DNA of 64,000 nucleotides from the NCBI RefSeq assembly GCF_008831285.2, contig NC_045149.1, forward strand, positions 14,782,578 through 14,846,577, read 5' to 3'. A program made the position numbers and the translations under genes. A model generated the notes under the pieces. The model saw nothing but the letters and a program-made list of their open reading frames with translations. It made no database searches and was not told the DNA's origin. The first letter of the stretch is position 1. Every line of letters starts with the position of its first letter. The stretch is from Nymphaea colorata (Eukaryota; Streptophyta; Magnoliopsida; Nymphaeales; Nymphaeaceae). Of this stretch, positions 7,867 to 41,286 are shown piece after piece.

Positions 7867-8170
7867 TCTTTATGCTTTTCAACAGTGGGGAATGCTAGAG
7901 TTGATCTCACTAGGTGTATGTCAGCAGAGTCGCACACGTCCTGCCACTCATGACCTAATTCAAATTTAAAGGTCTAAATGTCATTCCCATTCAGGTAGAC
8001 ATAGCTACACACCCAGGTACTCGTGACCTTCTTCGGGGTTGAGGGTCTTATTGTACACATACCTTATGTTGCGCCTCAACATCCAATCCTATCATACTAA
8101 ATGTTCTGGTGAAACCAGATAAGAGATCATCTGGTAGTCGACAATATACAATGAGGAGTACATGGGTGAC
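7867..8170. repeat. Diverged duplicate, copy 2 (pairs with 5936-6330)
   Basis: See the copy at 5936-6330. Here the shared words are ACAGTGGGGAATG, GCACACGTCC, CAAATTTAAAGGTC, CCCATTCAGGTAGAC, CTGGTAGTCGACAA and GAGTACATGG. Confidence 0.6.
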
Positions 8171-8877: not shown

Positions 8878-8994
8878 GAGGCGTACGCCTCACACCATGA
8901 AAAGGAGGCTTCAAAGCATTTTTCTCAAAAATGCTAAGAATGAGACGCAAAAGTCATTAAAGCTTGCACCTCATCGGGTTGAGGCATATGCCTC
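8878..8994. other. Pair of related perfect 14-bp palindromes
   Basis: GAGGCGTACGCCTC at 8878-8891 and GAGGCATATGCCTC at 8981-8994 are both perfect palindromes. They differ from each other at two symmetric positions. The interval has further GAGGC/GCCTC words and a TTTTTCTCAAAAATGC hairpin-like stretch, so it is probably a small degraded element. Confidence 0.6.
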
Positions 8995-9396
8995 GAACGA
9001 AGGCACACCCCTTTGCCTAAGGCCTATTCCTCAACGACTAAGCCATTTTTTATTCTTTTTATTAAAAAAATAAAAAGAATGGTCCGGTAACGTCCTGCTT
9101 TCGGTGAATTACTACTATTCACCATTTTCTCCTCATCCATCGGTGAAGGCTCAGACCTGTTGTCGCTGGTGGTAGAGTTACCGCCGAATCAGCCACTCCA
9201 ACAACAGCTGCAAGGTCCTTCTCTTCTTCTCAATCAGTTTTGTCACTCTCTCTCTATCACTCTGTGTGTGGAGGGCCATGACCAGCACCAAGGGTGGTGC
9301 CATATAATTTTTTCTATGTGACACTAAATATACAGTCAACCAAAAGAACCCAAGTCCATAGAAAAGTGAACCGAGTCTCATGCAGCTGCCCTTGGT

Positions 9397-9469
9397 AACT
9401 CCGTAAAACACATGCCCCACAAAATTTAAAGCTTCAAAATAACTCCGTAAAACACATGCCCCACAAAAT
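9397..9469. repeat. 43-bp period tandem duplication
   Basis: TAACTCCGTAAAACACATGC is present at 9397 and 9440. The two copies match over about 30 bp. Confidence 0.85.
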
Positions 9470-9743
9470 CCCAAACTATCTCCACCCCTGACCGTGGCTA
9501 GCGCTTGGCCTTCTCTCTCTCTGTCTCTCAAGTGCTCAATCCCTTGAATGAGAGAAAGAGAGAAAGCAGCGGTTCAAAAAAAAAAAAGAAAGAGAGAGCG
9601 GCTGCGCCAGCACACACTTATTAATTTTTAAAAACAATCCAAATGTCACAGGCTGACTGTTGAGGTCCTTGCCGTGCCGCACGGCCTGAAAGAGTCAGCC
9701 CGTGACACCAAATGTGACCTTATAAAGTGTTCACACGAACCGA

Positions 9744-10385
9744 GCGCAATAGAAATTTAATTGAATGCATTATGTGTGGCACTGATTACCTGTAAAAATT
9801 TTCATAGCCGCAAAAAATGCAGCTTTGAGCCTTCTTTTGCCCGCGTTCCCTTGTCATTCATTTGTTTCAAATATCGATACTGTTACCTGCGTGCTATGCA
9901 GTTTATGAATGTCAGAAATTCATATTATGCAAAAAAGTTCATGCTAGCAACTTTAATGAAAGCGTATATATTTTACAATTGGTTTATTTTGTAGGTCATG
10001 AACATAACTACCATATAACGCAGAGAGAGTAAACTAGAAGCTGTACACATCACATTTTAATTATGCGCAATAGAAATTAATTGAATGCTTTATGTGTGGC
10101 ACTCACTGATTACTTATAAAAGTTTCATGCCGCAAAAAATGCCGCTTTGAGCCTTCTTTTGTCTGTGTTCCCTCGTCATTCATTTGTTTCAAATATCGAT
10201 CCTGTAACCTGCGTGCTACGTAGTTTATGAATGTTTAAAATTCAAATTATTCAAAAAGTTAATGCTAGAAACTTTAATAAAAGGGTATATATTTTACAAT
10301 TGGTTTATTTTTTAGGTCATGAACATAACTACCATATAACGCAGAGATAGTAAAATAGAAGCTGTACACATCACGTTTTAATTAT
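9744..10385. repeat. 321-bp tandem duplication, two copies
   Basis: GCGCAATAGAAATT starts copy 1 at 9744 and copy 2 at 10065. The copies stay co-linear to their ends (CTGTACACATCAC-TTTTAATTAT), differing by point changes and small indels, roughly 90% alike by eye. Copy 1 contains a 77-codon open frame that copy 2 breaks, so it is probably not a gene. Confidence 0.85.
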
Positions 10386-10448
10386 CATTAATGCAATCAC
10401 AAACATCATCAATATTGATATTTTCCATTAGATCACATTTATTATATT

Positions 10449-10850
10449 TATAAACTTGTTCCAAGATTCTGTGAGTGCATATATTACGTTATTTAAGTCA
10501 TTCTAGTGTTCCAATATTCTTGTTATTTTAGTTTTTTCTTTTCTATTTTATTGACTATTTTGATAAATATTATATAACTATCGATGACTGAAGCTTTCGC
10601 TTCAATCGTCTCCCCCCTGGCCTCACCTCACAAGTAAGATCCCTTCTGTTATAATTTGTAAACTTGTTCAAAGATCCTATGGGTGCTAGCACAGATGTGT
10701 GTGTGTGTGTGTGTGTATAAAACCCAATATTTTAGTTATTTTAGTGTTCCAATATTTTTTTTTTTAGTTGGTTTGTACAATTTTTTGACTATTTTTATAA
10801 ATATAATATAACTAACAAATTTGACCATGAAGCTTTCGCTTCATCAGCCT
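10449..10850. repeat. Second local duplication, period about 208-239 bp
   Basis: TAAACTTGTT occurs at 10451 and 10659, and GAAGCTTTCGCTTCA occurs near 10590 and 10829. The growing offset comes from a TG microsatellite (10696-10717) and other indels in the second copy. Confidence 0.75.
10696..10717. repeat. (TG)n microsatellite
   Basis: About 11 uninterrupted TG units inside the second local duplication. Confidence 0.95.
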
Positions 10851-12417
10851 TACCTCAAACCATAGCAAGTAAGACCATCTTCCATACCAACCGCAAGAAG
10901 TCTTCAAAGTTGTCCTTAACAAATTGCAAACTGGTGACCAAGTGGGTTCCTAAGCAAGCCCATAAGATTCGCTGATGTGCTTCAACCTTTCCAACAAGCT
11001 TACGACCGACCTCATGTATCCCTGCAAATAACGTAGCACATATTATAGCGCCATGTCCTGACAAAACAAGAGAAACTAGAAAAGGTGTGCACCACCTCCT
11101 GCTATTGAGAAAACAGAAAAATCATGATCTCTTGAGAATACTAACAGGAAAGAGTCGTGTGGAGTGAATTCCATTTGCGTCACAGTCAAGCTGTGGGATC
11201 GTAAACATTAATACAGAGCCTACCATCATCCTACTCGCCATAGCCAGATTTCTGACTTTTGTAGGTGGTTTGAGAAAAAGATACTGGGAATTGCTGAATA
11301 AGGAGAAATTTACTTTTTATACAATAGCAGTTTGTACATCTAAAAATAAAATTTAGAAAGGTATGCGTACAGATGAAAAGGCTGCAGAGGCAAAATACGC
11401 ATCGAAGCTCAAAAGAAATGATATAACAAAGGCAAAAGTTTGGACGGTATCACCCTCATCATCCTTATCAAGTAGGATAAACTATAGCTTACAACCGCTC
11501 TAAAACTAACACATAACAGATTAACCCACCAAATGAACCAATAAGTTGGCATGAAAACTACAACAACCTTGTTTCTTAGGCTTCTTATGGAAGTTGAGGA
11601 GTCAGCTATGGCTGAAAACATGCTGCAGCAGAACATGTAGTCTAATGTACCTGATTCCTGCCCCAGGTGAAGCATTTAACATTGTTCATTCACATGAAGT
11701 CAACAGATCTAGTTAACTATTTGAAGGGCTGTGCCTCAGCTTTATATTTCCACAGAAAGATAGAGGAGCTCAATCGTCCCTACCTCCATTAGAGGTAAGC
11801 AAAAAAATTCAGGAAACATGGATCAACAACCCATAACATAGGCATCACAATTTCATGTCAAATACCAAACCAAACCAATACCACTAAGGTCTCTATCTCT
11901 CCCTCATGGCCAGTGCCCCTTTGACTTTCTGGTTACACACAAACCCACATCCATGGTACACTCTTAGCAGAGGCCCATTAGAAAACCGTGAAGACACTGA
12001 ACCACATATTTTAAGGGCCAACACGAAGTAGACACTGTTTTGAAGGTCATCAGATGATTATGTGATTGATATGCAAAGTGAAGAATGTTAACGGGTGTAA
12101 AGGTAAGGCATGCGTGGCAACAGCTATTGAACACAGCAAAGGCAAGGGATGCTCAAGTGTTGGACATGCACAGCAGATTTCTTCAATCAAAGATTCTATT
12201 GAAATGGAAAGCACCCATGTTAACGTTAAAGACAGTCATTGTAAATCAAGATCCATAAATCATGGTGAATGTAAAACAAAAATGGGATGGGAATCCTACT
12301 CAAAAACAAGATAGAAAGAGAGAGAGGTTTATTTCCATGGAATAGGACTGAACGACCAAACCACGTTAATTATTGTGCTCTTGTCTGTGGTTTCTCATTT
12401 TTTCATCAATTCTATTA
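10851..12417. other. Intergenic DNA; right part may be an eroded LTR
   Basis: No gene is supported. Because a Copia primer-binding site begins at 12418, the sequence just to its left (up to a few hundred bp) should be what remains of a 5' LTR, but I could not find a left LTR boundary or a second LTR. A minus-strand open frame at 10855-11064 is unassigned. Confidence 0.4.
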
Positions 12418-12758
12418 TGGTATCAGAGTGCTAAGGCAATGTTCAACCTTCGTTCAGCCATGGCGACACCGACCAAGAGCACAATATGCGAAAATCAGAC
12501 TAACGGTATGAATACTAGTATATTACCTCCTCTCCTTCAGCTTCCAAGCAATCTGCAGCACTTTCTCAGCATCAAATTGAATTCTGAAAATTATTTGTTT
12601 GGGAGTCGCAATTGACTGCTCAAAACAGGTCCATGTTTCGTGACCCAAGTTTATATCCAAGTACAATCGGAAGCACTTCAATATGCCACTATGACAAGGC
12701 CAGACATATCATTTGCTGTCAATAGAGTCTGTCAATATATGCACAATAGAGAGATATT
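12418..12758 (+). pseudogene. Internally deleted Ty1/Copia retrotransposon remnant
   Basis: TGGTATCAGAG at 12418-12428 matches the initiator-tRNA-Met primer-binding site of plant Copia elements. An open frame at 12460-12615 then ends with a peptide (LSIKLNSENYLFGSRN) resembling the conserved start of Copia gag, and stops. After only about 20 bases the sequence resumes with the end of the reverse transcriptase domain: [11 protein letters not shown] in one frame at about 12637-12670, then [17 protein letters not shown] and VCQYMH in the next frame, the switch being one extra base. Nearly all of gag, protease, integrase and most of RT is missing. A following A-rich run (from 12758) ends the recognisable part. 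Non-functional. Confidence 0.8.
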
Positions 12759-13090
12759 AAAAAAAAAACAAAAAAACAAACAATAGAGAAAGGGGTGCCC
12801 CTTCATGCATTAAGACAAAGGGCCTGTAGAGCCGCCCCCTCTTCGAGTGTGGAGGCGACGCACAAAGGTGGTTGCTCGGCAGTCCCTTGGAGAGAGTGAG
12901 AGAGACCCAAGTAATGAATCTAGTAAAGGACCATTTTGGAACTTATCAAATTCAAAGAATGAATTAGATTTCTGGCTGGTCTAAACCTATACTGGTTCTT
13001 CAAAACCTATACATTTATTGCATTTTACATAAAAACATAGTTCATCTTAAGACTTAAGCTAATCCAAGTCGCATTTGAAAAAAAAAACAA
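12759..13090. other. Unassigned DNA between Copia remnant and satellite
   Basis: An A-rich start, a GC-rich middle (12790-12900) and nothing recognisable. AAATTCTCGACTTCT occurs at 13091 and again at about 13150, where the satellite proper begins, so the left edge of the array is a small duplication. Confidence 0.4.
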
Positions 13091-13159
13091 ATTCTCGACT
13101 TCTCGTCCAGATGTCATACAAATCTATACCCAATGGGCTCAGATGTCATAAATTCTCGA

Positions 13160-15515
13160 CTTCTTGACAACATTGTCCAAAGAATAATTGAATATCAAAA
13201 ATCGTTACTACAGTATAGATCACTTTTTGTCAAATCGTCCACAATCAACTTCTCAAACCACCAATCATACAACCAACATTTATTTGAGGAGAAAGAGTAC
13301 CATACCAATGATACACAATGTCATATTGGGAATTTGGATCAGAGGTCTGATCTGACCCGGATAAGTTGTTGAACTCAGATTTAAAATCTCGATTTGAATC
13401 AGAGGTCTAATCTGATCCGTCTTCGATGTTGGATTTTGATTTGGGACCAATGATTTGGATTAGAGGCCGAATCTGCGATGTTGAATTTGGATTAGTGGTC
13501 TCATCTGATCCGGTATAGATGTTGAAATTTACATCATGGGTCCGGACCAGAGGTCTGATCTGTCCGGCTTTAGGTGTTTGCCACCAGACTCTAGATCACA
13601 TGTCTAACATGATCTTCTTTAGATGTTGTACTTGGGTTTGGATTTATGTCTATGGTTTACAATCTACTTTCCAGCATCATATGGGTGATCCCCTAAGCAT
13701 CCCAATAAACAAGTTGAAAGCTCAAATGTAATGAAAATGTAATTTGTCCAAAAGATAAGGATTTTAATTTCCATGTACAATTATTACATATCAAATATTG
13801 CATACAAAATCTTTGAATGGGGAACATTGAAGATAATTATCCAACGTTGGAATAGCCTAATCCAAGATTGAAATATTTATATCAATCTTCTTGGCAAAAC
13901 AATCCAAAGAATCATTGAAGATCACAAATTGTTCATATAGTATACATCTCTTATTCTAAAATAGTCCACAATGAACTACTTGAACTGTCAACCTTTACTC
14001 ATGTCTATGATCGTGATCTACAATCTACTTTTCAACATCATGTTGTCGATCTCCTAAGAATCCCAATAAACAAGTTTAAAGGCCATAAGTAATGAAAATG
14101 TACTTTGTCACAAAGATCATGATTTTAATTTTCCAAGTACAATTATTACATATCAAATATTGAACACAAAATCTTTGAATGGGGAACATCAAGGATAATT
14201 ATCCAACGTTGGAATATCATAACCCATGATTGAAACATTCATATCAATCTTATTGGCAAAACAATCCAAAGAATCGTTGAGGATCACAAATTGTTCGTAC
14301 AGTAAACATTTCTTTTTCTAAAATAGTCCACAATCCACTTCTTGAACCGTCAATCATACGTCCAACATTTATTTGACGGAAAAAAATATCAAAGAAATAA
14401 TAGAAGATACCATATGAGAATTTGGATCAGAGCTCTTATATTGACCCAAACAGGGTGTTCAACTCGAATTGAAGATTTCGGTTTGAATCAGAAGTCTAAT
14501 CTAATCCAGCTTAAGTGTTGGATTTTGGTTTGGGATCAATGATTTGAATAAGACGCTTTAACATGATTCGTATCTAGGGTCTAGACCAGACGTCTTATAT
14601 GTATGCCTTTAGGAGTTGGATTTGGATTTTGCAACAAGGGTGTAGATCACAACTGTAATATGATCATATCTAAATGTTGAACTTGGATTTGCATTTAAGT
14701 GTAGGATCGGGATCTACGGTACCCCTTTTGGCATCATGTGGGAGATCTCCTAAGCATCCCAATAAAGAAGTTGGAATCACATGAATAATCAAAATGATTT
14801 TGTCCAATGGATAAAGATTTCAATTTTCCATGTACAATTATGTGACGTATGAGGAATCATGGAAAGGGGGACAACAAAGATAATTATACAAGGTTGGAAT
14901 ATCCTAATCTTTTAACCAAATATTCATGTCAACCTTCTTGACAATATTGTCCAAAAAATAATTGAATATCATAAATTGTTCATACAGTATACATCTCTTT
15001 TTTTCAAATCGTCCACAATCAACTTCTCAAACCACCAATCATACATCCAACATTATTTGACGAGAAAGACTACCATACCAATGATGCACAATCTTATACT
15101 GGGAAATTGGATCAGAGGTCTAATCTGACCCGGATCAGCTGTTGAGCTCATATTTAAAATCTCGATTTGAATCAGAGGTCTAATCTGATTCGTCTTCATC
15201 TTCAGGGTTGTTGTAAATCACAAGTGTCAAACGATCATATTTAAATGTTGAACTTGGATTTGCATTTAAGTGTAGGATCGGGATCTACGATCTACCTTTC
15301 GGCATCATGTGGGTGATCCCCTAAGCATCTTAATATAAAAGTTGAAAGGACATGAGTAATGAAAATGATTTTGTCCAATGGATAAAGATTACAACTCTCC
15401 ATATATAATTATAACATATGAAATATTCAACATAAAACTCATGAGAGGGGGGACATCAAAGATAATTCTACAAGGTTGGAATATCCTAATCCTTTATTCA
15501 AATATTTATACCAAT
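13160..15515. repeat. Array unit 0: variant A, truncated B, full B, C
   Basis: A0 (13160, 727 bp) lacks the 60-bp internal duplication of later A monomers. It is followed by a B of only 362 bp (13887), a normal B (14249) and C (14934). This edge copy is irregular, as expected for the margin of an array kept uniform by unequal exchange. Confidence 0.85.
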
Positions 15516-17571
15516 CTTCTTGACAACATTGTTTAAAGAATAATTGAATATCATAAATTGTTCATATAGTATACATCTCTTCTTTTCAAGTCACCACAAT
15601 CAAATTTTTCAAACCACCAATCATACGTCCAAAATTTATTTGTTTTTCAAGTCTCCACAATCAAACTTCTCAAGCCACCAATCATACGTCCAAAATTTAT
15701 TTGACGAGAAAGAGTACCATGCCAATGATACACAATGTCATATTGGGAATTTGGATCAGAGGTCTGATCTGACCCGGATAAGTTGTTGAACTCAAATTTA
15801 AAATCTCGATTTGAATCAGAGGTCTAATCTGATCTGTCTTGGGTGTTGGATTTTGATTTGGGACCAATGATTTGGATTAGAGGCCGAATCTGCGATGTTG
15901 AATTTGGATCAGTGGTCTCATCTAATCCGGCATAGATGTTGAAATTTACATCATGGGTCCAGACCAGACGTCTGATCTGTCCGGCTTTAGATGTTTGCAA
16001 CTAGACTCTATATCACATCTCTAATATGATCTTATTTAGATGTTGTACTTGGGTTTCGATTTATGTCTATGATCGTGATCTTCAATCTACTTTTCAACAT
16101 CATGTAGTCGATCTCCTAAGAATCCCAATAAACAAGTTTAAAGGCCATAAGTAATGAAAAAGTACTTTGTCACAAAGATCATGATTCTAATTTTCCAAGT
16201 ACAATTATTACATATCAAATATTGAACACAAAATCTTTGAATGGGGAACATCAAGGATAATTATCCAACGTTCGAATATCCTAATCCATAATTGAAATAT
16301 TCATATCAATCTTATTGGCAAAACAATCCAAAGAAACGTTGAAGATCACAAATTGTTCGTATAGTATACATCTCTTTTTCTAAAATGGTCCACAATCAAC
16401 TTCTTGAACCGTCAATCATACGTCCAACATTTATTTCACGAAAAAAAATATCAAAGAAATAATGGAAGATACCATATGGGAATTTGGATCAGAGGTCTTA
16501 TCATGACCCAAACAGGGTTTTCAACTCGGATTGAAGATTTCGGTTTGAATCACTAGTCTAATCTAATCCAGCTTAAGTGTTGGATTTTGGTTTGGGATCA
16601 AAGATTTGAATAAGACGCATTAACATGATTCGTATCTTGGGTCTAGACCAGACGTCTTATATGTCTGCCTTTAGGACTAGGATTTGGATTTCGCAACAAG
16701 GGTGTAGATAACAAGTTTAATATGATCATATTTAAATGTTGAACTTGGATTTGCATTTAAGTGGAGGATCGGGATCTACAATACACCTTTTGAAATCATG
16801 TGGGAGATCTTCTAAGCATCCCAATAAACAAGTTGAAAGGACATGAATAATCAAAATTATTTTGTCCAATGGATAAAGATTTCAATTTTCCAAGTACAAT
16901 TATCTGACGTATGAGGAATCTTGGAAAGGGGGACAACAAAGATAATTATACAAGGTTGGAATATCCTAATCTTTTAATCAAATATTCATGTCAACCTTCT
17001 TGACAATATTGTCCAAAAAATATTTGAATATCATAAATTGTTCATACAGTATACATCTCTTTTTTTCAAATCGTCCACAATCAACTTCTCAAACCACCAA
17101 TCATACATCCAACATTATTTGACGAGAAAGACTACCATACCAGTGATGCACAATCTCATATTGGGAAATTGGATCAGAGGTCTGACGTGACCCGGATCAG
17201 CTGTTGAACTCATATTTAAAATCTCGATTTGAATCAGAGGTCCAATCTGATTCGTCTTCAGGGTTGTTGTAAATCACAAGTGTCATACGATCATATTTAA
17301 ATGTTGAACTTGGATTTGCATTTAAGTGTAGAATCGGGATCTACGATCTACCTTTCGGCATCATGTGGGTGATCCCCTAAGCATCTTAATAAAAAAGTTG
17401 AAAGGACATGAGTAATGAAAATGATTTTGTCCAATGGATAAAGATTACAACTCTCCATATATAATTACAACATATGAAATATTCAACACAAAACTCATGA
17501 GAGGGGGGACATCAAAGATAATTCTACAAGGATGGAATATCCTAATCCTTTATTCAAATATTTATAACAAT
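15516..17571. repeat. Array unit 1 (A-B-C, 2056 bp)
   Basis: Monomers start at 15516, 16311 and 16996. This is the first fully regular unit. Confidence 0.9.
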
Positions 17572-19625
17572 CTTCTTGACAACATTGTTTAAAGAATAAT
17601 TGAATATCATAAATTGTTCATATAGTATACATCTTTTCTTTTCAAGTCTCCACAATCAAATTTTTCAAACCACCAATCATACGTCCAAAATTTATTTGTT
17701 TTTCAAGTCTCCACAATCAAGCTTCTCAAGCCACCAATCATACGTCCAAAATTTATTTGACGAGAAAGAGTACCATGCCAATGATACACAATGTCATATT
17801 GGGAATTTGGATCAGAGGTCTGATCTGACCCGGATAAGTTGTGGAACTCAAATTTAAAATCTCGCTTTGAATCAGAGGTCTAATCTGATCTGTCTTGGGT
17901 GTTGGATTTTGATTTGGGACCAATGATTTGGATTAGAGGCCGAATCTGCGATGTTGAATTTGGATCAGTGGTCTCATCTAATCCGTCATAGATGTTGAAA
18001 TTTACATCATGGGTCCGAACCAGACGTCTGATCTGTCCAGCTTTAGGTGTTTGCAACTAGACTCTATATCGCATCTCTAATATGATCTTATTTAGATGTT
18101 GTACTTCGGTTTCGATTTATGTCTATGATCGTGATCTTCAATCTACTTTTCAACATCATGTAGTCGATCTCCTAAGAATCCCAATAAACAAGTTTAAAGG
18201 CCATAAGTAATGAAAATGTACTTTGTCACAAAGATCATGATTCTAATTTTCCAAGTACAATTATTACATATCAAATATTGAACACAAAATCTTTGAATGG
18301 GGAACATCAAGGATAATTATCCAACGTTCGAATATCCTAATCCATGATTGAAATATTCATATCAATCTTATTGGCAAAACAATCCAAAGAATCGATGAAG
18401 ATCACAAATTGTTCGTATAGTATACATCTCTTTTTCTAAAATAGTCCACAATCCACTTCTTGAACCATCAATCATACGTCCAACATTTATTTGACGGAAA
18501 AAAATATCAAAGAAATAATGGAAGATACCATATCGGAATTTGGATCAGAGGTCTTATCTTGACCCAAACAGGATGTTCAACTCGGATTGAAGATTTCGGT
18601 TTGAATCAGAAGTCTAATCTAATCCAGCTTAAGTGTTGGATTTTGGTTTGGGATCAAAGATTTGAATAAGACGCTTTAACATGATTTGTATCTTGGGTCT
18701 AGAACAGACCTCTTATATGTCTGCCTTTAGGAGTTGGTATAGGATTTTGCAACAAGGGTGTAGATCACAAGTGTAATATGATCATATCTAAATGTTGAAC
18801 TTGGATTTGCATTTAAGTGAAGGATCGGGATCTACGATACACCTTTTGGCATCATGTGGGAGATCTCCTAAGCATCCCAATAAACAGGTTGAAAGGACAT
18901 GAATAATCAAAATGATTTTGTCCAATAGATAAAGATTTCAATTTTCCATGTACAATTATCTGACGTATGAGGAATCTTGGAAAGGGGGACAACAAAGATA
19001 ATTATACAAAGTTGGAATATCCTAATCTTTTAACCAAATATTCATGTCAACCTTCTTGACAATATTGTCCAAAGAATAATTGCATATCAAAAATTGTTCA
19101 TACAGTATACATCTCTTTTTTTCAAATCGTCCACAATCAACTTCTCAAACCACCAATCATACATCCAACATTTATTTGACGAGAAAGACTACCATACCAA
19201 TGATGCACAATCTCATATTGGGAATTTGGATCAGAGGTCTGATCTGACCCGGATCAGCTGTTGAACTCATATTTAAAATCTCGATTTGAGTCAGAGGTCT
19301 AATCTGATTCGTCTTCAGGGTTGTTGTAAATCACAAGTGTCATACGATCATATTTAAATGTTGAACTTGGATTTGCATTTAAGTGTAGGATCGGGAACTA
19401 CGATCTACCTTTCGGCATCATGTGGGTGATCTCCTAAGCATCTTAATAAAAAAGTTGAAAGGACATCAGTAATGAAAATCATTTTGTCCAATGGATAAAG
19501 ATAACAATTTTCCATATATAATTAAAATATATGAAATATTCAACACAAAACTCATGAGAGGGGGGACATCAAAGATAATTCTACAAGGTTGGAATATCCT
19601 AATCTTTTATTCAAATATTTATACC
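17572..19625. repeat. Array unit 2 (A-B-C, about 2054 bp)
   Basis: Monomers start at 17572, 18367 and 19052. Closely similar to unit 1. Confidence 0.9.
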
Positions 19626-21417
19626 AATCACAACATTGTTCAAAGAATAATTGAATATCATAAATTGTTCATATAGTATACATCTCTTCTTTTCAAGTCT
19701 CCACAATCAAATTTCTCAAACCACCAATCATACGTCCAAAATTTATTTGTTTTTCAAGTCTCCACAATCAAACTTCTCAAGCCACCAATCATGCGTCCAA
19801 AATCTATTAGACAAGAAAAAGTATCATGCCAATGATACACAACGTCATATTGGGAATTTGGATCAGAGGTCTGATCTGACCCGGATAAGTTGTTGAACTC
19901 AAATTTAAAATCTCGATTTGAATCAGAGGTCTAATCCGATCCGTCTTGGGTGTTGGATTTTGATTTGGGACCAATGATTTGGACTAGAGGCCGAATCTGC
20001 GATGTTGAATTTGGATCAGTGGTCTCATCTAATCCGGCATAGATGTTGAAATCAACATCATGGGTCCGAACCAGAGGTTTGATTTGTCCGGCTTTAGATG
20101 TTTGCAACTAGACTCTATATCACATCTCTAATATGATATTATTTAGATGTTCTACTTGGGTTTCGATTTATGTCTATGATCGTGTTCTTCAATCTACTTT
20201 TCAACATCATGTGGTCGATCTCCTAAGAATCCCAATAAACAAGTTTAAAGGCCATAAGTAATGAAAATGTACTTTGTCACAAAGATTATGATTTTAACTT
20301 TCCAAGTACAATTATTACATATCAAATATTGAACACAAAATCTTTGAATGGAGAACATCAAGGATAATTATCCAACGTTGGAATACCCTAATCCAAGATT
20401 GAAATATTCATATCAATCTTATTGGCAAAACAATCCAAAGAATCGTTGAAGATCACAAATTGTTCGTATAGTATACATCTCTTTTTCTAAAATAGTCCAC
20501 AATCCACTTCTTGAACCGTCAATCATACGTCCAACATTTATTTGACGGAAAAAAATATCAAAGAAATAATGGAAGATACCATATGGGAATTTGGATCAGA
20601 GGTCTTATCTTGACCCAAACAGGGTGTTCAACTCGGATTGAAGATTTCGGTTTGAATCAGAAGTCTAATCTAATCCAGCTTAAGTGTTGGATTTTGGTAT
20701 GGGATCATCAATGATTTGAATAAGACGCATTAACATGATTCGTATCTTGGGTCTAAACCAGACGTCTTATATGTCTGCCTTTAGGAGTTTGATTTGGATT
20801 TTGCAACAAGGGTGTAGATCACAACTGTAATATGATCATATCTAAATGTTGAACTTGGATTTGCATTTAAGTGTAGGATCGGGATCTACGGTACCCCTTT
20901 TGGCATCATGTGGGAGATCTCCTAAGCATCCCAATAAAGAAGTTGGAATCACATGAATAATCAAAATGATTTTGTCCAATGGATAAAGATTTCAATTTTC
21001 CATGTACAATTATGTGACGTATGAGAAATCTTGGAAAGGGGGACAACAAAGATAATTATACAAGGTTGGAATATCCTAATCTTTTATCCAAATATTCATG
21101 TCAACCTTCTTGACAATATTATCCAAAGAATAATTGCATATTATAAATTGTTCATACAATATACATCTCTTTTTTTCAATTCGTCCACAATCAACTTCTC
21201 AAACCATCAATCATACATCCAACATTTATTTGACGAGAAAGACTACCATACTAATGATACACAATGTCATATTGGGAATTTGGATCAGAGGTCTGATCTG
21301 ACCCGGATCAGCTGTTGAACTCATATTTAAAATCTCGATTTGAATCAGAGGTCTAATCTGATTCGTCTTCAGGGTTGTTGTAAATCACAAGTGTCATACG
21401 ATCATATTTAAATGTTG
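19626..21417. repeat. Array unit 3 (A-B-truncated C)
   Basis: A starts at about 19626 without the usual CTTCTTGA anchor (a short deletion), B at 20418 and C at 21106. C breaks off near 21417, soon after AAATGTTG. Confidence 0.85.
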
Positions 21418-23390
21418 GAAAGACTACCATACCAATGATACACAACGTCCAAAATTTATTTGTTTTTCTAGTCTGCACAATCAAACTTCTCAAGCCACCA
21501 ACCACACGACCAAAATTTATTTGACGAGAAAGAGTACCATGCCAATGATACACAATGTCATATTGGGAATTTGGATCAGAGGTCTGATCTGACCCGGATA
21601 AGCTGTTGAACTCAAATTTAAAATCTCGATTTGAATCAGAGGTCTACTCTGATCCGTCTTGGGTGTTGGATTTTGATTTGGGACCAATGATTTGGACTAG
21701 AGGACGAATCTGCGATGTTGAATTTGGATCAGTGGTCTCATCTAATCCGGCATAGATGTTGAAATTTACATCAAGGGTCCGAACCAGAAGTCTGATCTGT
21801 CCGGCTTTAGGTGTTTGCAACTAGACTCTATATCACATCATTAATATGATCTTATTTAGATGTTGTACTTGGATTTCGATTTAGGTCTATGATCGTGATC
21901 TTCAATCTACTCTTCAACATCATGTGGTCGATCTCCTAAGAATACCAATAAACAAGTTAAAAGGCCATAAGTAATGAAAATGTACTTTGTCACAAAGATC
22001 ATGCTTTTAATTTTCCAAGTACAATTATTACATATCAAATATTGAACACAAAATCTTTGAATGGGGAACACCAAGGATAATTATCCAACGTTGGAATATC
22101 CTAATCCATGATTGAAATATTCATATCAATCTTATTGGCAAAACAATGCAAAGAATCGCTGAAGATCACAAATTGTTCGTATAGTATACATCTCTTTTTC
22201 TAAAATAGTCCACAATCCACTTCTTAAACCGTCAATCAAACGTCCAACATTTATTTGACGAAAAAAAATATCAAAGAAATAATGGAAGATACCATATGGG
22301 AATTTGGATCAGAGGTCTTATATTGACCCAAACAGGGTGTTCAACTCGGATTGAAGATTTCGGTTTGAATCAGAAGTCTAATCTAATCCAGCTTACTTGT
22401 TGGATTTTGGTTTGGGATCAAAGATTTGAATAAGACGCTTTAACATGATTCGTATCTTGGGTCTAGACCAGACGTCTTATATGTCTGCCTTTAGGAGTAG
22501 GATTTGGATTTTGCAACAAGGGTGTTGTAGATCACAAGTGTAATACGATCGTATCTAAATGTTGAACTTGGATTAGCATTTAACTTTAGGATCGGGATCT
22601 ACAATACACCTTTTGGCATCATGTGGGAGATCTCCTAAGCATCCCAATAAACAAGTTGAAAGGACATGAATAATCAAAATGATTTTGTCCAATGGATAAA
22701 GATTTCAATTTTCCATGTACAATTATGTGACGAATGAGGAATCTCGGAAAGGACAACAAAGATAATTATACAAGGTTGGAATATCCTAATCTTTTATCCA
22801 AATATTCATGTCAACCATCTTGACAATATTGTCCAAATAATAATTGCATATAATAAATTGTTCATACAGTATACATCTCTTTTTCAAATCGTCCACAATC
22901 AACTTCTCAAACCACCAATGATACATCCAACAATTATTTGACGACAAAGATTACCATACCAATGAAGCACAATCTCACATTGGGAATTTCGATCAGAGGT
23001 CTGATCTGACCCGGATCAGCTGTTGAACTCATATTTAAAATCGCGATTTGAATCAGAGGTCTAATCTGATTCGTCTTCAGGGTTGTTGTAAATCACAAGT
23101 GTCATACGATCATATTTAAATGTTGGACTTGGATTTACATTTAAGTGTACGATCGGGATCTACGATCTACCTTTCGTCATCATGTGGGTGATCTCCTAAG
23201 CATCTTAATAAAAAAGTTGAAAGGACATGAGTAATGAAAATCATTTTGTCCAATGGATAAAGAGTACAATTTTCCATATATAATTATAACATATGAAATA
23301 ATCAACACAAAACTCATGAGAGAGGGGACATCAAAGATAATTCTGCAAGGTTGGAATATCCTAATCTTTTATTCAAATATTTATATCAAT
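21418..23390. repeat. Array unit 4 (5'-truncated A, B, C)
   Basis: Begins with a C-like scrap (GAAAGACTACCATACC) joined to the middle of an A monomer (CGTCCAAAATTTATTTG). B follows at 22131 and C at 22816. The B-to-B spacing across this junction is 1713 bp instead of about 2055, so about 340 bp were lost. Confidence 0.85.
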
Positions 23391-25444
23391 CTTCTTGACA
23401 ACATTGTTCAAAGAATAATTGCATATCATTAATTGTTCATATAGTATACATCTCTTCTTTTCAAGTCTCCACAATCAAATTTCTCAAACCACCAAACATA
23501 CGTCCAAAATTTATTTGTTTTTCAAGTCTGCACAATCAAACTTCTCAAGCCACCAATCACACGTCCAAAATTTATTTGACGAGAAAGAGTACCATGCCAA
23601 TGATACACAATGTCATATTGGGAATTTGGATCAGAGGTCTGATCTGACCCGGATAAGCTGTTGAACTCAAATTTAACATCTCGATTTGAATCAGAGGTCT
23701 AATCCGATCCGTCTTGGGTGTTGGATTTTGAATTGGGACCAATGATTTGGACTAGAGGACGAATCTGCGATGTTGAATTTGGATCAGTGGTCTCATCTAA
23801 TCCGGCATAGATGTTGAAATTTACATCAAGGGTCCGAACCAGAAGTCTGATCTGTCCGGCTTTAGGTGTTTGCAACTAGACTCTATATCACATCATTAAT
23901 ATGATCTTATTTAGATGTTGTACTTGGATTTCGATTTAGGTCTATGATCGTGATCTTCAATCTACTCTTCAACATCATGTGGTCGATCTCCTAAGAATAC
24001 CAATAAACAAGTTAAAAGGCCATAAGTAATGAAAATGTACTTTGTCACAAAGATCATGCTTTTAATTTTCCAAGTACAATTATTACATATCAAATATTGA
24101 ACACAAAATCTTTGAATGGGGAACACCAAGGATAATTATCCAACGTTGGAATATCCTAATCCATGATTGAAATATTCATATCAATCTTATTGGCAAAACA
24201 ATGCAAAGAATCGCTGAAGATCACAAATTGTTCGTATAGTATACATCTCTTTTTCTAAAATAGTCCACAATCCACTTCTTAAACCGTCAATCAAACGTCC
24301 AACATTTATTTGACGAAAAAAAATATCAAAGAAATAATGGAAGATACCATATGGGAATTTGGATCAGAGGTCTTATATTGACCCAAACAGGGTGTTCAAC
24401 TCGGATTGAAGATTTCGGTTTGAATCAGAAGTCTAATCTAATCCAGCTTACTTGTTGGATTTTGGTTTGGGATCAAAGATTTGAATAAGACGCTTTAACA
24501 TGATTCGTATCTTGGGTCTAGACCAGACGTCTTATATGTCTGCCTTTAGGAGTAGGATTTGGATTTTGCAACAAGGGTGTAGATCACAAGTGTAATACGA
24601 TCGTATCTAAATGTTGAACTTGGATTAGCATTTAACTTTAGGATCGGGATCTACAATACACCTTTTGGCATCATGTGGGAGATCTCCTAAGCATCCCAAT
24701 AAACAAGTTGAAAGGACATGAATAATCAAAATGATTTTGTCCAATGGATAAAGATTTCAATTTTCCATGTACAATTATGTGACGAATGAGGAATCTCGGA
24801 AAGGACAACAAAGATAATTATACAAGGTTGGAATATCCTAATCTTTTATCCAAATATTCATGTCAACCATCTTGACAATATTGTCCAAATAATAATTGCA
24901 TATCATAAATTGTTTATACAGTATACATCTCTTTTTTTCAAATCGTCCACAATCAACTTCTCAAACCACCAATCACACATCCAACATGTATTTGACGAGA
25001 AAGACTACCATACCAATGATGCACAATCTCATACTGGGAATTTGGATCAGAGGACTGATCTGACCCGGATCAGCTGTTGAACTCATATTTAAAATCTCGA
25101 TTTGAATCAGAGGTCTAATCTAATTCGTCTTCAAGGTTGTTGTAAATCACAAGTGTGATACGATCATATTTAAATGTTGAACTTGGATTTGCATTTAAGT
25201 GTAGGATCGGGATCTACGATCTACCTTTCGGCATCATGTGGGTGATACCCTAAGCATCTTAATAAAAAAGTTGAAAGGACATGAGTAATGAAAATCATTT
25301 TGTCCAATGGATAAAGATTACAATTTTCCATATATAATTATAACATATGAAATATTCAACACAAAAATCATGAGAGGGGGGACATCAAAGATAATTCTAC
25401 AAGGTTGGAATATCCGAATCTTTTATTCAAATATTTATACTCAT
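23391..25444. repeat. Array unit 5 (A-B-C, 2054 bp)
   Basis: Monomers start at 23391, 24186 and 24868. From about 23755 to 24890 it is almost identical to unit 4 (21705-22840); I saw only a 3-bp indel (GGTGTTGTAGATC against GGTGTAGATC). Confidence 0.9.
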
Positions 25445-27492
25445 CTTCTTGACAACATTGTTCAAAGAATAATTGAATATCATAAATTGTACATATAGTA
25501 TATATCTCTTCTTTTCAAGTCTCCACAATCAAATTTCTCAAACCACCAATCATACGTCCAAAATTTATTTGTTTTTCAAGTCTGCACAATCAAACTTCTC
25601 AAGCCACCAATCACACGTCCAAAATTTATTTGACGAGAAAGAGTACCATGCCAATGATACACAATGTCATATTGGGAATTTGGATCAGAGGTCTGATCTG
25701 ACCCGGATAAGCTGTTGAACTCAAATTTAAAATCTCGATTTGAATCAGAGGTCTAATCTGATCCGTCTTGGGTGTTGGATTTTGATTGGGGACCAATGAT
25801 TTGGATTAGAGGTCGAATCTGCGATGTTGAATTTGGATCAGAGGTCTCATCTAATCCGGCATAGATGTTGAAATTTACATCATGGGTCCGAACCAGAGGT
25901 CTGATCTGTCCGGCTTTAGGTGTTTGCAACTAGACTCTATATCACATCTCTAATATGATCTTATTTAGATGTTGTACTTCGGTTACGATTTATGTCTATG
26001 ATCGTGATCTTCAATCTACTTTTCAACATCATGTGGTCGATCTCCTAAGAATACCAATAAACAAGTTTAAAGGCCATATAAGTAATGAAAATGTACTTTG
26101 TCACAAAGATCATGATTTTAATTTTTCAAGTACAATTACTACATATCAATTATTGAACGCAAAATCTTTGAATGGAGAACATCAAGGATAATTATCCAAC
26201 GTTGGAATATATCCTAATCCATGATTGAAATATTCATATCAATCTTATTGGCAAAACAATAAAAAGAATTGTTGAAGATCACAAATTGTTCGTATAGTAT
26301 ACATTTCTTTTTCTAAAATAGTCCACAAGCCACTTCTTGAACCGTCAATCATACGTCCAACATTTATTTGACGAAAAAAAATATCAAAGAAATAATGGAA
26401 GATACCATATGGGAATTTGGATCAGAGGTCTTATATTGACCCAAACAGGGTGTTCAACTCGGATTGAAGATTTCGGTTTGAATCAGAAGTCCAATCTAAT
26501 CCAGCTTAATCGTTGGATTTTAGTTTGCGATCAAAGATTTGAATAAGACGCTTTAACATGACTCGTATCTTGGGTCTAGACCAGACGTCTTATATGTCGG
26601 CCTTTAGGAGTAGGATTTGGATTTTGCAACAAGGGTGTAGATCACAAGTGTAATATGATCGTATCTAAATGTTGAACTTGGATTAGCATTTAACTTTAGG
26701 ATCGGGATCTACAATACACCTTTTGGCATCATGTGGGAGATCTCCTAAGCATCCCAATAAGCAAGTTGAAAGGACATGAATAATCAAAAAGATTTCGTCC
26801 AATGGATAAAGATTTCAATTTTCCATGTACAATTATGTGACGAATGAGGAATCTCGGAAAGGAGGACAACAAAGATAATTATACAAGGTTGGAATATCCT
26901 AATCTTTTATCCAAATATTCATGTCAACCATCTTGACAATATTGTCCAAATAATAAATTGTTCATACAGTAAACATCTCTTTTTTTCAAATCGTCCACAA
27001 TCAACTTCTCAAACCACCAATCATACATCCAACATTTATTTGACGAGAAAGACTACCATACCAATGATGCACAATCTCATATTGGGAATTTGGATCAAAG
27101 GTCTGATCTGACCGGGATCAGCCATTGTACTCATATTTAAAATGTCGATTTGAATCAGAGGTCTAATCTGATTCGTCTTCAGGGTCGTTGTAAATCACAA
27201 GTGTCATATGATCATATTTAAATGTTGAACTTGGATTTGCATTTAAGTGTAGGATCGGGATCTACGATCTACCTTTCGGCATCATGTGGGTGATCTCCTA
27301 AGCATCTTAATAAAAAAGTTGAAAGGACATGAGTAATAAAAATGATTTTGTCCAATGGATAAAGATTACAATTTTCCATATATAATTATAACATATGAAA
27401 TATTCAACACAATACTCATGAGAGCGGGAACATCAAAGATAATTCTGCAAAGTTGGAATATACGAATCTTTTATTCAAATATTTATATCAAT
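25445..27492. repeat. Array unit 6 (A-B-C, 2048 bp)
   Basis: Monomers start at 25445, 26244 and 26929. Shares with units 4 and 5 the B variant CATTTAACTTTAGG and the C variant CATCTTGAC. Confidence 0.9.
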
Positions 27493-29600
27493 CTTCTTGA
27501 CAACATTGTTCAAAGAATAATTTAATATCATAAATTGTTCATATAGTATACATCTCTTCTTTTCAAGTCTCCACAATCAAATTTCTCAAACCACCAATCA
27601 TACGTCCAAAATTTATTTGTTTTTCAAGTCTCCACAATTAAACTTCTCAAGCCGCCAAGCACACGTCCAAAATTTATTTGACGAGAAAGAGTACAATGCC
27701 AATGATACACAATGTCATATTGAGAATTTGGATCAGAGGTCTGATCTGACCCGGATAAGTTGTTGAACTCAAATTTAAAATCTCGATTTGAATCAGAGGT
27801 CTAATCCGATTCGTCTTGGGTGTTGGATTTTGATTTGGGACCAAGTTGAAAGAATAATTGAATATCATAAATTTTCATAAAGTATACATCTCTTCTTTTC
27901 AAGTCTCCACAATCAAATTTCTCAAACCACCAATCACACGTCCAAAATTTATTTGTTTTTCAAGTCTCCATAATCAAACTTCTCAAGCCACCAATCATAC
28001 GTCCAAAATTCATTTGACGACAGAGAGTACCATGCCAATGATATACAATGTCATATTGGGAATTTGGATCAGAGGTCTGATCTGACCCGGATAAGCTGTT
28101 GAACTCAAATTTAAAATCTCGATTTGAATCAGAGGTCTAATCCGATCCGTCTTGGGTGTTGGATTTTGATTTGGGACCAATGATTTGGACTAGAGGTCGA
28201 ATCTCCGATGTTGAATTTGGATCAAAGGTCTCATCTAATCCGACATAGATGTTGAAATTTACATCATGGGTCCGAACCAGAGGTCTGATCTGTCCAGCTT
28301 TAGGTGTTTGCAACTAGACTCTATATCACATCTCTAATATGATCTTATTTAGATGTCCTTGGGTTTGGATTTATGTCTATGATCGTGATCTACAATCGAC
28401 TTTTCAGCATCATGTTGGCGATCTCCTAAGCATCCCAATACGTCGAACATTTATTTGACGAAAAAAATATCAAAGAAATAATAAAAGATGCCATATGGAA
28501 ACTTGGATCAAAGGTCTTATCTGACCCGAACAAGGAGTTGAACTCGGATTGAAAATCTCGATTTGCATCAGAAGTCTAATCTGGTCCAGCTTAAGTGTTG
28601 GATTTTGGTTTGGAATCAATGATTTGAATAAGACGCTTAACCTAATTCGTATCTTGGGTCTGGACCAAAGGTCTTATATGTTCGCCTTTAGGAGTTGGAT
28701 TTGGATTTTGCAACAAGGGTGTAGATCACAAGTGTAATATGATCATATCTAAATGTTGAACTTGGATTTGCATTTAAGTATAGGTTTGGCATCATGTGAG
28801 AGATCTCCTAAGCATCCTAATAAACAAGTTGAAAGGACATGAGTAATCAAAATGATTTTGTCCAATGGATAAAGATTTCAATTTTCCATGTACAATTATA
28901 TGACATATGAGGAATCTTGGAAAGGGGGACATCAAAGATAATTAGACAAGGTTCGAATATCATAATCTTTTATTCAAATATTTATATTAATCTTCTTGAC
29001 AATATTGTCCAAAGAATAATTGAATATCATAAATTGTTCATACAGTATACATCTCTTTTTTTCAAATCGTCCACAATCAACTTCTCAAACCGCCAATCAT
29101 ACATCCAACATTTATTTGACGAGAAAGATTACCATACCAATGATACACAATGTCATATTAAGAATTTGGATCAGAGGTCTGATCTGACCCGAATAAGCTG
29201 TGGAACTCAGATTAAAATCTCGATTTGAATCAGAGGTCTACTCTGATCCGTCTTCGGTGTTGGATTTTGATTTGGGACCAATGATTTGGATTAGAGGCTA
29301 AATCTGCAATGTTGAAGATCCGGTATAGATGTTGAAATTTAGATCATGGGTCCGGACTAGAGGTCTCATATGATCAGGTATAGATGTTGACTTGGATTTG
29401 GTTATGCGTTTAGATCAATGGTCTTATCTAATCCAAAAAATTCTTGGATTTAGATCTAGTTGTAGGTATCAATCAATGGTCTTATCTAATTTGTAAATTT
29501 TTGGATTTGGATATAGTTGTGTTTCTAGATCAATAGTCTTACTCTTACCTTTGTAGGTCTAGATTAATGATCTTATGTGATCCAAAAAATTGTTGGATTT
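27493..29600. repeat. Array unit 7 and degenerate right edge
   Basis: A7 starts at 27493, breaks at about 27845 inside GGGACCAA and restarts as another A near its own beginning (GAAAGAATAATTGAATATC). It then jumps at about 28440 into a shortened B, followed by a C/A-like monomer at 28992. From about 29320 only the short subrepeats remain (GATCAATGGTCTTATCTAATCC and relatives, spaced about 55-60 bp), fading out by about 29600. Confidence 0.8.
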
Positions 29601-31800
29601 GGATCAATATATTTTATTCTGAGTATAAAGGCCAAAGCGCAAAGTTACGAGTGGTGTGAACAAGACCAATACGTACAAACGACTCGTTTGGCCTTGTTTG
29701 CTCCACAAACATACCCAAATCTAATTTACTTATGGGCAGAGGAGAACCATGAGCAATAACAACAGTCAAACCATAAGCCTTGACAATTTGCAGCTTATAG
29801 TAGTCAATAGTCATCACCCAAATATACCACAAACACCTGAGTGTGGCAAATTTATTAGACATAGCATTCATTTTAAATATCCTAACTCAATGAAGTGCAA
29901 GCGTTTACATCTATAATAAATGTTTGCACATCATAATAAAGATACGCACTTGCAAAATGCCATGCAAAATTTCAAACATTCTTGTTACCATGTTTGACAT
30001 TCAGTTATTGAATTAGTATTTTTTCCTATGATGATGTACACGATCCATATCATCATTATCTTCAGAGAATTATTGAACAGAGATCAACCTTTTGGAAATA
30101 AGAGGCAATTTCAAGTATGCAATGATGTACACAACCCATATCATCATTATCTTTCAACCATGCATCCCAATACCCGCACCCAAATTTGCTACACTAGATC
30201 ATAGTACTTCAGTGAAATCGTGTGGACTACACTTATCATGACCATTGGGTTCTCACGTCATAGTAATCAACTCATGATATACATACAGCCTGACAAATCC
30301 AGAGTTCGTAGCACAAAGCAGTCATGGAGAAGGACGTTTACAATATTCTAATCTGAAAATGTAACACAAGACCAACTTGGTGGATATAACAGATTTAGGT
30401 TAATATTAACATTTTTGTACGGAAAAATATAATAAAATTCAAAAAGAAAGGAACGTTTTTGCAAACATTTGACATAAAAAGAAACAGCATGACAATTTGT
30501 TTTTTCAAGTTCCATTTAATTTTTTATGTTATTAAGAATCAGGAAATGTTTATTAAAAGCTTGATAAAAAACTATGAAATTTTTTGTTTAATTAAAATTT
30601 GACCACAAGTTTTGCAAATATATATGAGTTCAAAACATTATGAATGCCCACAAGTGTCAAATATTTAGAAAGGCTCGAAAAAGTTCAAAAAATTTTCAAC
30701 TATTGATTCAAATATCATGAAAATTTGAGAAATATAAACGTTAACCAAGTTCAAAAGTCATAAAAATCTGTGTCACTACTTAACACTTTGGTAGGACTAG
30801 AACAAAATAAAATTGGAAAAAACTAGGAAGGTTTATCAAACATTGTAGAAACTTTTTTCTTCAGATAGTTATAAACTTCAAATTACTTAGAAAAAAAATT
30901 AAGCAACATCTGAAAACAGATTTGTAAAGAGAATGTCAAAATATACAAAAGATGTGAACCCTTAAGATAATAAAAAACCTTTAAAATTTTACTTTTTGAA
31001 AAAAAGTTATTAGTTTATGTAGTTTCAAAAAAAATTACAACAATTATTAGCATATGAACTCAACAATGAGTTCATGAGAACAAACGAGAACTTAAAATCA
31101 TCCTATGAAAGTTAATTTGCTTCACAAAGTAAAGTTTTTCGAAAATATTTCATTTAAAAGAAATTTTTCCACAAATTTAGAAGAGTACAAGAGCATGTTG
31201 TTGAAAAAGTATGAAACTTTTCATCTAAGCTTACAAATATTTACAGGAAAAAAAAATTGGGGTGCTTATGAAAATAATTTCCTAAAGATGTTTATGCAAG
31301 TTTGAAAAAATATGTGAAAGATTGCACAAGTTGAAAGGATCATTGAACTTTTGTCAAAGTTAGTAATATGCTTATAAAAAGTACATAAAGATTTGATAAA
31401 TAGTATATAAAAATGTTGTCAAACGGTGATTTATTATTTGCCCGAAGTTAGTAGCTTTGTAATTTTTTTTTTTTTCAAATGTTTGCAAAAGCATTCAAAT
31501 TGAAAAACCAGCAAGCAAGAGGTCACTACTATTTAAAGAAGGCAAGAGAAAAGATTCAGTAAAACATGTTTTAGTGCCACACATCAGAAACACGTTGCAA
31601 TTCACAATTTAGACTTGTTGGTAAAGCAATGAACACAGAACCTGCGATATTTCATTTGCCTCTAGAATTTGTACTAATCAGCATATCATACAGCCAACAA
31701 AGCCTAGTTTCAAGCATCTATCACAGTATAAGTTAGCAAAACGAAAGAGCAAATGTTATATACACATTACACACATACTGAATCCACATGGTCAAATAAA
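29601..31800. other. Very AT-rich intergenic DNA, no gene seen
   Basis: Particularly from 30400 to 31500, made largely of A and T runs with recurrent GTTCAAAA, TGAAATTTTT and GTTTGCAAA words. No exon-like or RNA-gene signal. Confidence 0.5.
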
Positions 31801-31879
31801 TAATTCGACATCAGCAAAAATAACATGCCATCAATAATGAATAGAAAATGCAGGAACTTATAATTGTGTAGAAAGGAAA

Positions 31880-36270: not shown

Positions 36271-36329
36271 CTTCCATACACATACATATTTTGGAATATT
36301 CTTGATGTCAATTAATTAAGACTCAAAAC

Positions 36330-41243: not shown

Positions 41244-41286
<43 letters not shown>

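What the first reader, a model, noticed from the sequence alone, without database searches (positions are those of the whole stretch)
13091..29600. Satellite array with three nested levels of periodicity
The block repeats at about 2.05 kb. Each unit contains three diverged monomers of different length (about 795, 685 and 577 bp) that share the same anchor, and each monomer contains imperfect repeats of roughly 50-60 bp centred on GATCAGAGGTCTGATC. Higher-order organisation of this kind is best known from centromeric and knob satellites, and monomers of 577-795 bp are unusually long. I recognise no named family. It is the most striking non-genic structure in the window.
Basis: seen in the sequence. 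Interest (0 to 1): 0.75.

Follow-up and report, generated by a model that had tools for sequence, protein, structure and literature searches.

The report
Plant satellite with nested repeat units
This is a real block of satellite DNA in what looks like a water-lily genome, built much like human alpha satellite (old paired monomers grown into locus-specific larger units) but scattered near genes together with its flanking DNA, and one copy carries a scar that could mean it moved through a circular DNA molecule.

Summary
Window 13,160-29,434 is a head-to-tail array with a ~2,055 bp unit of three diverged monomers, each part ~340 bp body and part ~60 bp sub-repeats. Corrections: monomer lengths depend on the anchor (796/695/565 or 733/685/638 bp), and sub-repeats fill only part of each monomer. 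The core 16-mer occurs 197 times in the 408 Mb genome (0 in the reversed control), in arrays of different period on many chromosomes. The genome fits Nymphaea colorata (inferred, not proven).

A tree of 88 monomers from seven chromosomes and an unplaced contig shows two old types, alpha and beta, older than the dispersal and then homogenised within each locus; the window array is a beta-alpha-alpha trimer. Arrays share kilobases of flank, lie near genes, and several chromosomes carry more than one, so a centromeric role has no support here. Two flank blocks that lie 2 bp apart on C2 and C4 sit at the opposite ends of the window's 28.25 kb block: the circular permutation expected from a circular DNA intermediate. 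Against it, the 5.85 kb between array and right-hand block is not shared with those loci. A new satellite family of a known kind; the circular route is the interesting, unproven part.

The parts
8163..12832 (+). left flank block 'A'; found in the same place beside satellite on C4, C13 and C2:31.9 Mb; its left edge 8163 is a breakpoint
13160..29434 (+). satellite array, higher-order repeat of ~2,055 bp (beta-alpha-alpha monomers)
13337..15753 (+). first unit, 2,417 bp, with a 362 bp tandem duplication (13658-14353)
15754..17809 (+). canonical 2,056 bp unit
17810..19860 (+). canonical unit, 2,051 bp
19861..21573 (+). shortened unit, 1,713 bp
21574..27730 (+). three further units (2,055, 2,054 and 2,048 bp)
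27731..29434 (+). disordered right end: 336 bp partial duplication, then truncated monomers
29411..29541 (+). degenerate ~57 bp sub-repeats at the array edge
29435..35282 (+). 5.85 kb between array and block F; best outside matches on C11, C13:3.18 and C5:27.07 Mb at 78-81%, only 63-67% patches to the right flanks on C4, C13 and C2
   Evidence: queried 29,620-35,282
35283..36414 (+). block 'F'; lies directly upstream of block A on C2:31.9 and C4, and upstream of it on C13; both its edges are breakpoints here

Best explanation
The block is a locus of an interspersed satellite family whose monomers combine a ~340 bp body with ~60 bp sub-repeats carrying the motif GATCAGAGGTCTNATCTGATC. Shown by sequence: two monomer types, alpha and beta, existed before the family spread; arrays of the family sit on C1, C2, C3, C4, C10, C12 and C13 with shared flanks; within each locus the copies are much more alike than between loci; the window array has gained a second alpha type and repeats as beta-alpha-alpha. 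Inferred: the arrays spread as parts of duplicated chromosome blocks, then each grew, shrank and homogenised in place by unequal exchange or gene conversion (expected from general knowledge of satellites). No coding or RNA function was found, and I judge that the array has no locus-specific function beyond that of repetitive, probably heterochromatic DNA (inferred, untested).
For: Higher-order repeat in the window. 197 exact core copies in the genome, 0 in the reversed control; 129 copies of a 29-mer with up to 2 mismatches, 0 in the control. Tree of 104 bodies, 88 of them from the family proper: alpha clade 43 (support 0.971), beta clade 45 (support 0.727); mean identity 0.932 same clade and locus (327 pairs), 0.829 same clade and different locus (1,566 pairs), 0.76 alpha to beta whether in the same locus (337 pairs) or not (1,598 pairs); 12 of 13 clade-by-locus sets monophyletic, C92 being merged with C2. 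Shared flanks: window 8,163-12,832 with C4 (69-87%), C10 with C1 and C3 (~88%), C4 with C2 and C13 (81-88%); the C1 and C10 flanks align without a break across the end of the array. A prediction from the left flank was met in the 1 locus tested: C2:31.9 Mb carries one beta body and part of another.
Against: The same prediction from one right-flank type failed: 0 of 8 fetched copies (two of them 99.7% identical, so 7 independent) carried this satellite in the ~5.4 kb on the array side; two of them carried a different, ~307 bp repeat. Part of that flank is itself a dispersed repeat (40 of 44 candidates scored, 68-91% identity), so the duplicated-block reading is firmer for the left flank than for the right. 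Support of the beta clade is moderate (0.727); beta monomers of C1 are not monophyletic, and of 7 C1 bodies that entered the tree 6 are beta. C3 and C4 depart in places from strict alternation. All from one assembly of one species; array lengths may be collapsed.
Confidence: 0.83

Rival explanations
1. Centromeric or knob satellite: the arrays mark centromeres or heterochromatic knobs.
For: Higher-order repeats are well known from centromeres (passages of PMC4053949). A related 173 bp tandem array (26 copies in the 4.5 kb fetched, 96% match) lies on C9 at 13.8 of 25.2 Mb, and the C13 array at 8.92-8.95 of 18.0 Mb, both near mid-chromosome.
Against: Arrays are ~4-29 kb, several chromosomes have more than one locus, relative positions vary widely, and genes lie within kilobases.
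Confidence: 0.08
2. Tandem repeats born inside a transposable element (3' untranslated region of an LTR retrotransposon, or a DNA transposon end) and dispersed by transposition.
For: Such an origin is documented for most satellites of Lathyrus sativus (abstract of PMC7004042). Flanks are shared between chromosomes, and the right flank is next to different tandem repeats at different loci.
Against: No retroelement or transposase domain in the 30 open frames tested from the window and flanks (a sample). One right-flank type holds V-ATPase subunit D gene fragments (PF01813). The copia-like element found beside three arrays is a separate high-copy family: its 40 scored copies (of 2,653 candidates) are spread over the genome at 98-100% identity. 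No clean terminal repeats or target-site duplication were recognised; an inverted similarity between the outer flanks of C4 and C2 (69-76%) stays unexplained.
Confidence: 0.12
3. The permuted order in the window came from ordinary linear rearrangement (tandem duplication with later deletions, or separate relocation of block F) and no circle was involved.
For: The stretch 29,435-35,282 is not shared with C4, C13 or C2, so the rest of the supposed circle cannot be traced. Loci with blocks F and A have seen further change: on C13 the junction is eroded and part of A is inverted.
Against: Both outer ends of the window block fall on the same point of the F|A junction, 2 bp apart on C4 and on C2:31.9 Mb; a linear path needs two breaks there independently. 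Simple relocation of F predicts sequence U (upstream of F on C2, C4 and C13) to the left of 8,163; none is there.
Confidence: 0.5
4. Derived from the spacer of ribosomal DNA.
For: Spacers often hold sub-repeats of this size (recalled).
Against: No Rfam match in the window at gathering scores. The rRNA search of the genome failed and a recalled 5.8S pattern gave 0 matches, so the spacer itself could not be compared.
Confidence: 0.03

Closest known systems
Primate alpha satellite with higher-order repeats (named from general knowledge; higher-order structure as described in passages of PMC4053949)
   Same: Ancient monomer types, multimeric units homogenised locus by locus, monomers far less alike than units.
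   Different: Here the monomer is ~600-800 bp, itself built on ~60 bp sub-repeats; arrays are only ~4-29 kb, interspersed near genes, with no evidence of a centromeric role. No sequence comparison with alpha satellite was made.
Plant satellites with higher-order repeats (sorghum dimer, switchgrass units of 792-1,131 bp; passages of PMC4053949)
   Same: Higher-order repeats in plant satellite, some with truncated monomers.
   Different: Those are centromere repeats with short (~137-175 bp, partly recalled) monomers; here monomers are long and loci are scattered.
Satellites from tandem repeats of LTR retrotransposons in Lathyrus sativus (PMC7004042, abstract)
   Same: Short arrays with shared flanks scattered over the genome, expanding locally.
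   Different: No retrotransposon parent found here; one flank type holds fragments of a host gene.
Circular-DNA-mediated segmental duplications in human (PMC7450558, passages)
   Same: Change of block order with both ends of one copy joined inside the other, with a scar of 1 or 2 bp.
   Different: Here only one of the two expected junctions can be traced to the base on both copies, and the middle of the block is not shared.

Membership tests
Satellite DNA with higher-order repeats | head-to-tail tandem array | tested here: met
Satellite DNA with higher-order repeats | diverged monomers within a unit, near-identical units | tested here: met
   neighbours 0.74-0.88 (21 pairs); three apart 0.94-1.00 in 14 of 19 pairs
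Satellite DNA with higher-order repeats | several arrays in the genome, homogenised locally | tested here: met
   12 of 13 clade-by-locus sets monophyletic
Centromeric satellite | bound by CENH3 | not testable with these tools
   no ChIP data
Centromeric satellite | one major site per chromosome | tested here: not met
   more than one locus of the satellite superfamily on C1, C2, C3, C10 and C12; counts by the tool are lower bounds
Centromeric satellite | arrays of hundreds of kilobases or more | tested here: inconclusive
   ~4-29 kb seen, but the assembly may collapse or break long arrays
LTR-retrotransposon tandem repeat | polyprotein domains or LTRs around the array | tested here: inconclusive
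   none in 30 sampled frames; no flanking LTR pair in the window self-comparison; not every flank or frame was scanned
rDNA spacer repeat | adjacent to rRNA genes or similar to the spacer | tested here: inconclusive
   no rRNA in the window; genome rRNA search failed, pattern search empty
Circular-DNA-mediated duplication | outer ends of one copy joined inside the other | tested here: met
   window 36,414 and 8,163 are 2 bp apart on C4 and on C2:31.9
Circular-DNA-mediated duplication | outer ends of the other copy joined inside the first (second junction) | tested here: inconclusive
   F starts as a sharp edge at 35,283, but the stretch before it is not shared with C4, C13 or C2
Circular-DNA-mediated duplication | empty acceptor site in a relative | not testable with these tools
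   no related plant genome is held

The most novel reading that the evidence does not exclude
Satellite arrays of this family travel with kilobases of flank through extrachromosomal circular DNA: a circle holding block F, block A and an array was opened at (or closed by) the F|A junction, leaving a 28.25 kb circularly permuted copy with a 2 bp scar on C12 relative to C2 and C4. That would be base-level evidence of circle-mediated dispersal of a plant satellite locus, as opposed to the known presence of satellite circles.
Probability: 0.4. Interest if true: 0.72.

Novelty: new member of a known kind. Interest (0 to 1): 0.48.

Why it matters
The family is a compact natural series in an early-branching flowering plant (if the species is right): sub-repeat, monomer, ancestral pair, locus-specific unit and duplicated block can all be dated against each other, at loci small enough to be assembled through. 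Circles made of satellite DNA are common in plants (PMC2543021, abstract), but their role in spreading satellites is mostly inferred; a permuted locus with a base-level scar makes that testable. Four papers searches on Nymphaea repeats and centromeres listed no description of this satellite, and the N. colorata genome paper has no occurrence of 'satellite', 'tandem repeat' or 'centromer' in its main text.

Tried and rejected
Parent element of the array: the copia-like element beside the arrays on C92, C13 and C3 (RVT_2; places) first looked like a parent because the same sequence adjoins two satellite types; it is a separate high-copy family, so I rejected it. Right-flank prediction: failed in 8 of 8 fetched copies. 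Terminal inverted repeats: the outer flank of C4 is similar in inverted orientation to that of C2:19.27 and C2:31.9 (69-76%), but no clean ends were seen; left open. Conserved palindrome as a protein-binding box: in 32 units of the C1 array the 21 bp dyad is more conserved than the rest (mean major-base frequency 0.845 against 0.691, p = 0.003), and its arms pair slightly more than in column shuffles (0.737 against 0.690; 2 of 1,000 shuffles reach it), but the next 22 bp are conserved too (0.774), the 32 units are two near-copies of 16, and only one locus was used; I draw no conclusion. An earlier profile chose units by their core and so is biased. rDNA origin: not testable. A block X next to the right-flank type I on C3 also hints at permutation, but was not resolved to the base.
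Full report
What the sequence shows. The window is G000:C12:14,782,578-14,846,577 of a 407,766,735-base assembly in 783 contigs. Contigs 1 to 14 are 12.6-44.0 Mb, C15 is 7.3 Mb, and the others sampled are 1.3 Mb or less. The published N. colorata assembly has 409 Mb, 804 scaffolds and 14 pseudo-chromosomes (passages of PMC7015852), so that species fits; I have no direct proof. From 13,160 to 29,434 the window is a tandem array. The commonest 12-mer offsets are 2056, 2054 and 2055; ungapped self-match at 2056 is 0.372 against 0.275 on average and at most 0.287 in 20 shuffles. Monomers three apart are 0.94-1.00 identical in 14 of 19 pairs, the 5 exceptions lying at the ends and across a shortened unit, while neighbours are 0.74-0.88.

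The sub-repeat. The ~60 bp repeat carries GATCAGAGGTCTNATCTGATC. The 16-mer GATCAGAGGTCTGATC has 197 exact copies in the genome (32 plus 165), none in the reversed control; the tool listed the first 100 places, on C1, C2, C3, C4, C8, C9, C10 and C12, and a DNA query added C13, C92 and C589. The fetched loci form arrays of quite different period: C1:36.17 Mb 983 and 1,965 bp (16 and 32 units of 61 bp), C9:13.79 Mb 173 bp, C3:19.92 Mb ~1,256 bp, C10:17.11 Mb ~890 bp, C2:19.27 Mb 1,406 and 2,750 bp, C4:25.10 Mb 1,421 bp, C3:2.70 Mb 1,051 bp. Some share only the ~60 bp unit and have other bodies. So this is a superfamily of satellites joined by one short unit, of which the window belongs to one body type.

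Two old monomer types. I took 104 bodies of at least 280 model positions from 17 sampled records, 22 of them from the window; 88 belong to the family proper (C12, C10, C1, C2, C3, C4, C13, C92 and the single copy at C2:31.9 Mb). They split into an alpha clade of 43 (support 0.971) and a beta clade of 45 (support 0.727). Alpha to beta identity averages 0.76 whether the two are in one locus (337 pairs) or in different loci (1,598 pairs); within a clade it is 0.829 between loci (1,566 pairs) and 0.932 within a locus (327 pairs). Of 13 clade-by-locus sets 12 are monophyletic, with C92 counted as C2; the beta set of C1 is not. The simplest reading is that alpha and beta existed before dispersal and that each locus was homogenised afterwards. 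C10, C2, C13, C92 and one C4 sample alternate strictly; C3 and the other C4 sample do so with departures; in C1 6 of 7 bodies that passed the length filter are beta. The window reads b b a a b a a b a a b a b a a b a a b a a a from left to right, a beta-alpha-alpha trimer with two alpha sub-types.

Flanks are shared. Window 8,163-12,832 matches the corresponding flank of the C4 array (69-87% by piece), and parts of it lie beside the C13 array. As a query, window 10,933-12,417 had 9 first-look candidates, all scored: four loci with long matches (C12, C4, C13, C2:31.9 Mb) and two short ones (C2:3.96 and C5:15.34 Mb, not fetched). C2:31.9 Mb had not been fetched before; the prediction that satellite would follow the flank there was met: one complete beta body, part of another and five sub-repeats. 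On the other side, the right flanks of C10, C1 and C3 agree over up to 4.2 kb at ~88%, and those of C4, C2:19.27 and C13 at 81-88%; C1 and C10 align without a break across the end of the array. But when I fetched 8 more copies of the first right-flank type, none had this satellite on the array side, and two had a ~307 bp repeat like the one beside the C10 array. Two of the eight are 99.7% identical. That flank holds V-ATPase subunit D fragments (PF01813) and matches at least 40 places at 68-91%. I therefore see dispersal of array and left flank together as well supported, and the history of the right flanks as mixed.

A circular permutation. Block F (window 35,283-36,414) is low-copy: 9 candidates, all scored, with long matches at C12, C2:31.90, C4:25.12, C4:25.04 and C13:8.96 Mb, the rest 132 bp or less. 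On C2:31.9, C4 and C13 it lies upstream of block A, which is followed by the satellite. On C4 and C2 the join can be read to the base: window 36,414 is followed after 2 bp by window 8,163 in both. In the window the order is A, array, 5.85 kb, F, all on one strand, so that the outer ends of the 28,252 bp block are the two sides of that join. Upstream of F the three other loci share further sequence (85-90%), which the window leaves exactly at 35,283; this sequence is not found left of 8,163 either, so F did not simply move. Such a change of order with 1-2 bp scars is the published signature of duplication through a circle (passages of PMC7450558). By my rough reckoning two independent breaks would coincide within 2 bp in 28 kb about once in 10,000 trials.

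Limits of that reading. The stretch between array and F in the window has its best outside matches on C11, C13:3.18 and C5:27.07 Mb (78-81%; 40 of 658 candidates scored) and only 63-67% patches with the right flanks of C4, C13 and C2. So only one of the two junctions of the supposed circle can be traced, the direction (C12 as donor or receiver) is open, and C13 shows order but not the join. I give the circle 0.4.

Function. No open frame of 150 aa starting with ATG, GTG or TTG exists in the window, no Rfam family matches at gathering scores and no tRNA was found. The array lies between unidentified sequence and a pair of DnaJ gene copies whose similarity begins at 36,452. The most likely state is non-coding repetitive DNA maintained by recombination. 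A conserved dyad in the sub-repeat is suggestive but the test is weak. A centromeric role is not supported, and not excluded.

Noticed in passing
L030 (G000:C19:1-600): This 26 kb contig begins with about ten copies of CCCCAA, a telomere type known from ciliates (recalled), not the plant type; perhaps a contaminant contig.
   Followed up: no
L018 1-1878, L006 1239-6200, L035: A copia-like retrotransposon (RVT_2) sits beside or inside satellite on C92, C3:0.3 Mb and C13; its 40 scored copies elsewhere are 98-100% identical, so it was active recently.
   Followed up: partly
L003 (G000:C1:36168000-36174000): Pure 61 bp sub-repeats form a 16-unit repeat of 983 bp, itself doubled to 1,965 bp (99% match).
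   Followed up: partly
L013 (G000:C9:13793500-13798000): 173 bp tandem array, 26 copies in the slice, 96% match, near mid-chromosome; contains the same core; the best centromere candidate seen, untested.
   Followed up: no
window 36452-50721: Two tandem DnaJ gene copies on the minus strand, 73-85% identical by piece.
   Followed up: no
L057+L068 (C3:15.873-15.884 Mb) 8687-9468; L056/L067 (C3:2.68-2.69 Mb): V-ATPase subunit D gene fragments with broken frames, in duplicated blocks next to satellite on C3 (and aligned sequence on C10).
   Followed up: partly
C13:8.923-8.952 Mb: Exact 29-mer copies 2,845 bp apart alternate with a one-base variant: the C13 pair unit seems to have doubled into a four-monomer unit.
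   Followed up: no
C10:19.6093-19.6155 Mb (L049, L014): A ~307/617 bp satellite lies directly upstream of this family's array; the same repeat follows the right-flank block on C4:21.99 and C1:26.59 Mb.
   Followed up: partly
C4:25.114-25.124 Mb (L044, L047) against C2:19.266-19.272 and C2:31.911-31.912 Mb: Outer flanks resemble each other in inverted orientation (69-76%), like old terminal repeats or a shared small transposon.
   Followed up: partly
C589 with C2:19.29 Mb, C315 with C10:17.11 Mb: Unplaced contigs look like alternative copies of placed loci: C589 and C2 align at 98% over 4 kb; C315 and C10 gave matches of equal score and spacing to one query.
   Followed up: no
window 9744-10385: Tandem duplication of 321 bp inside left flank block A.
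   Followed up: no
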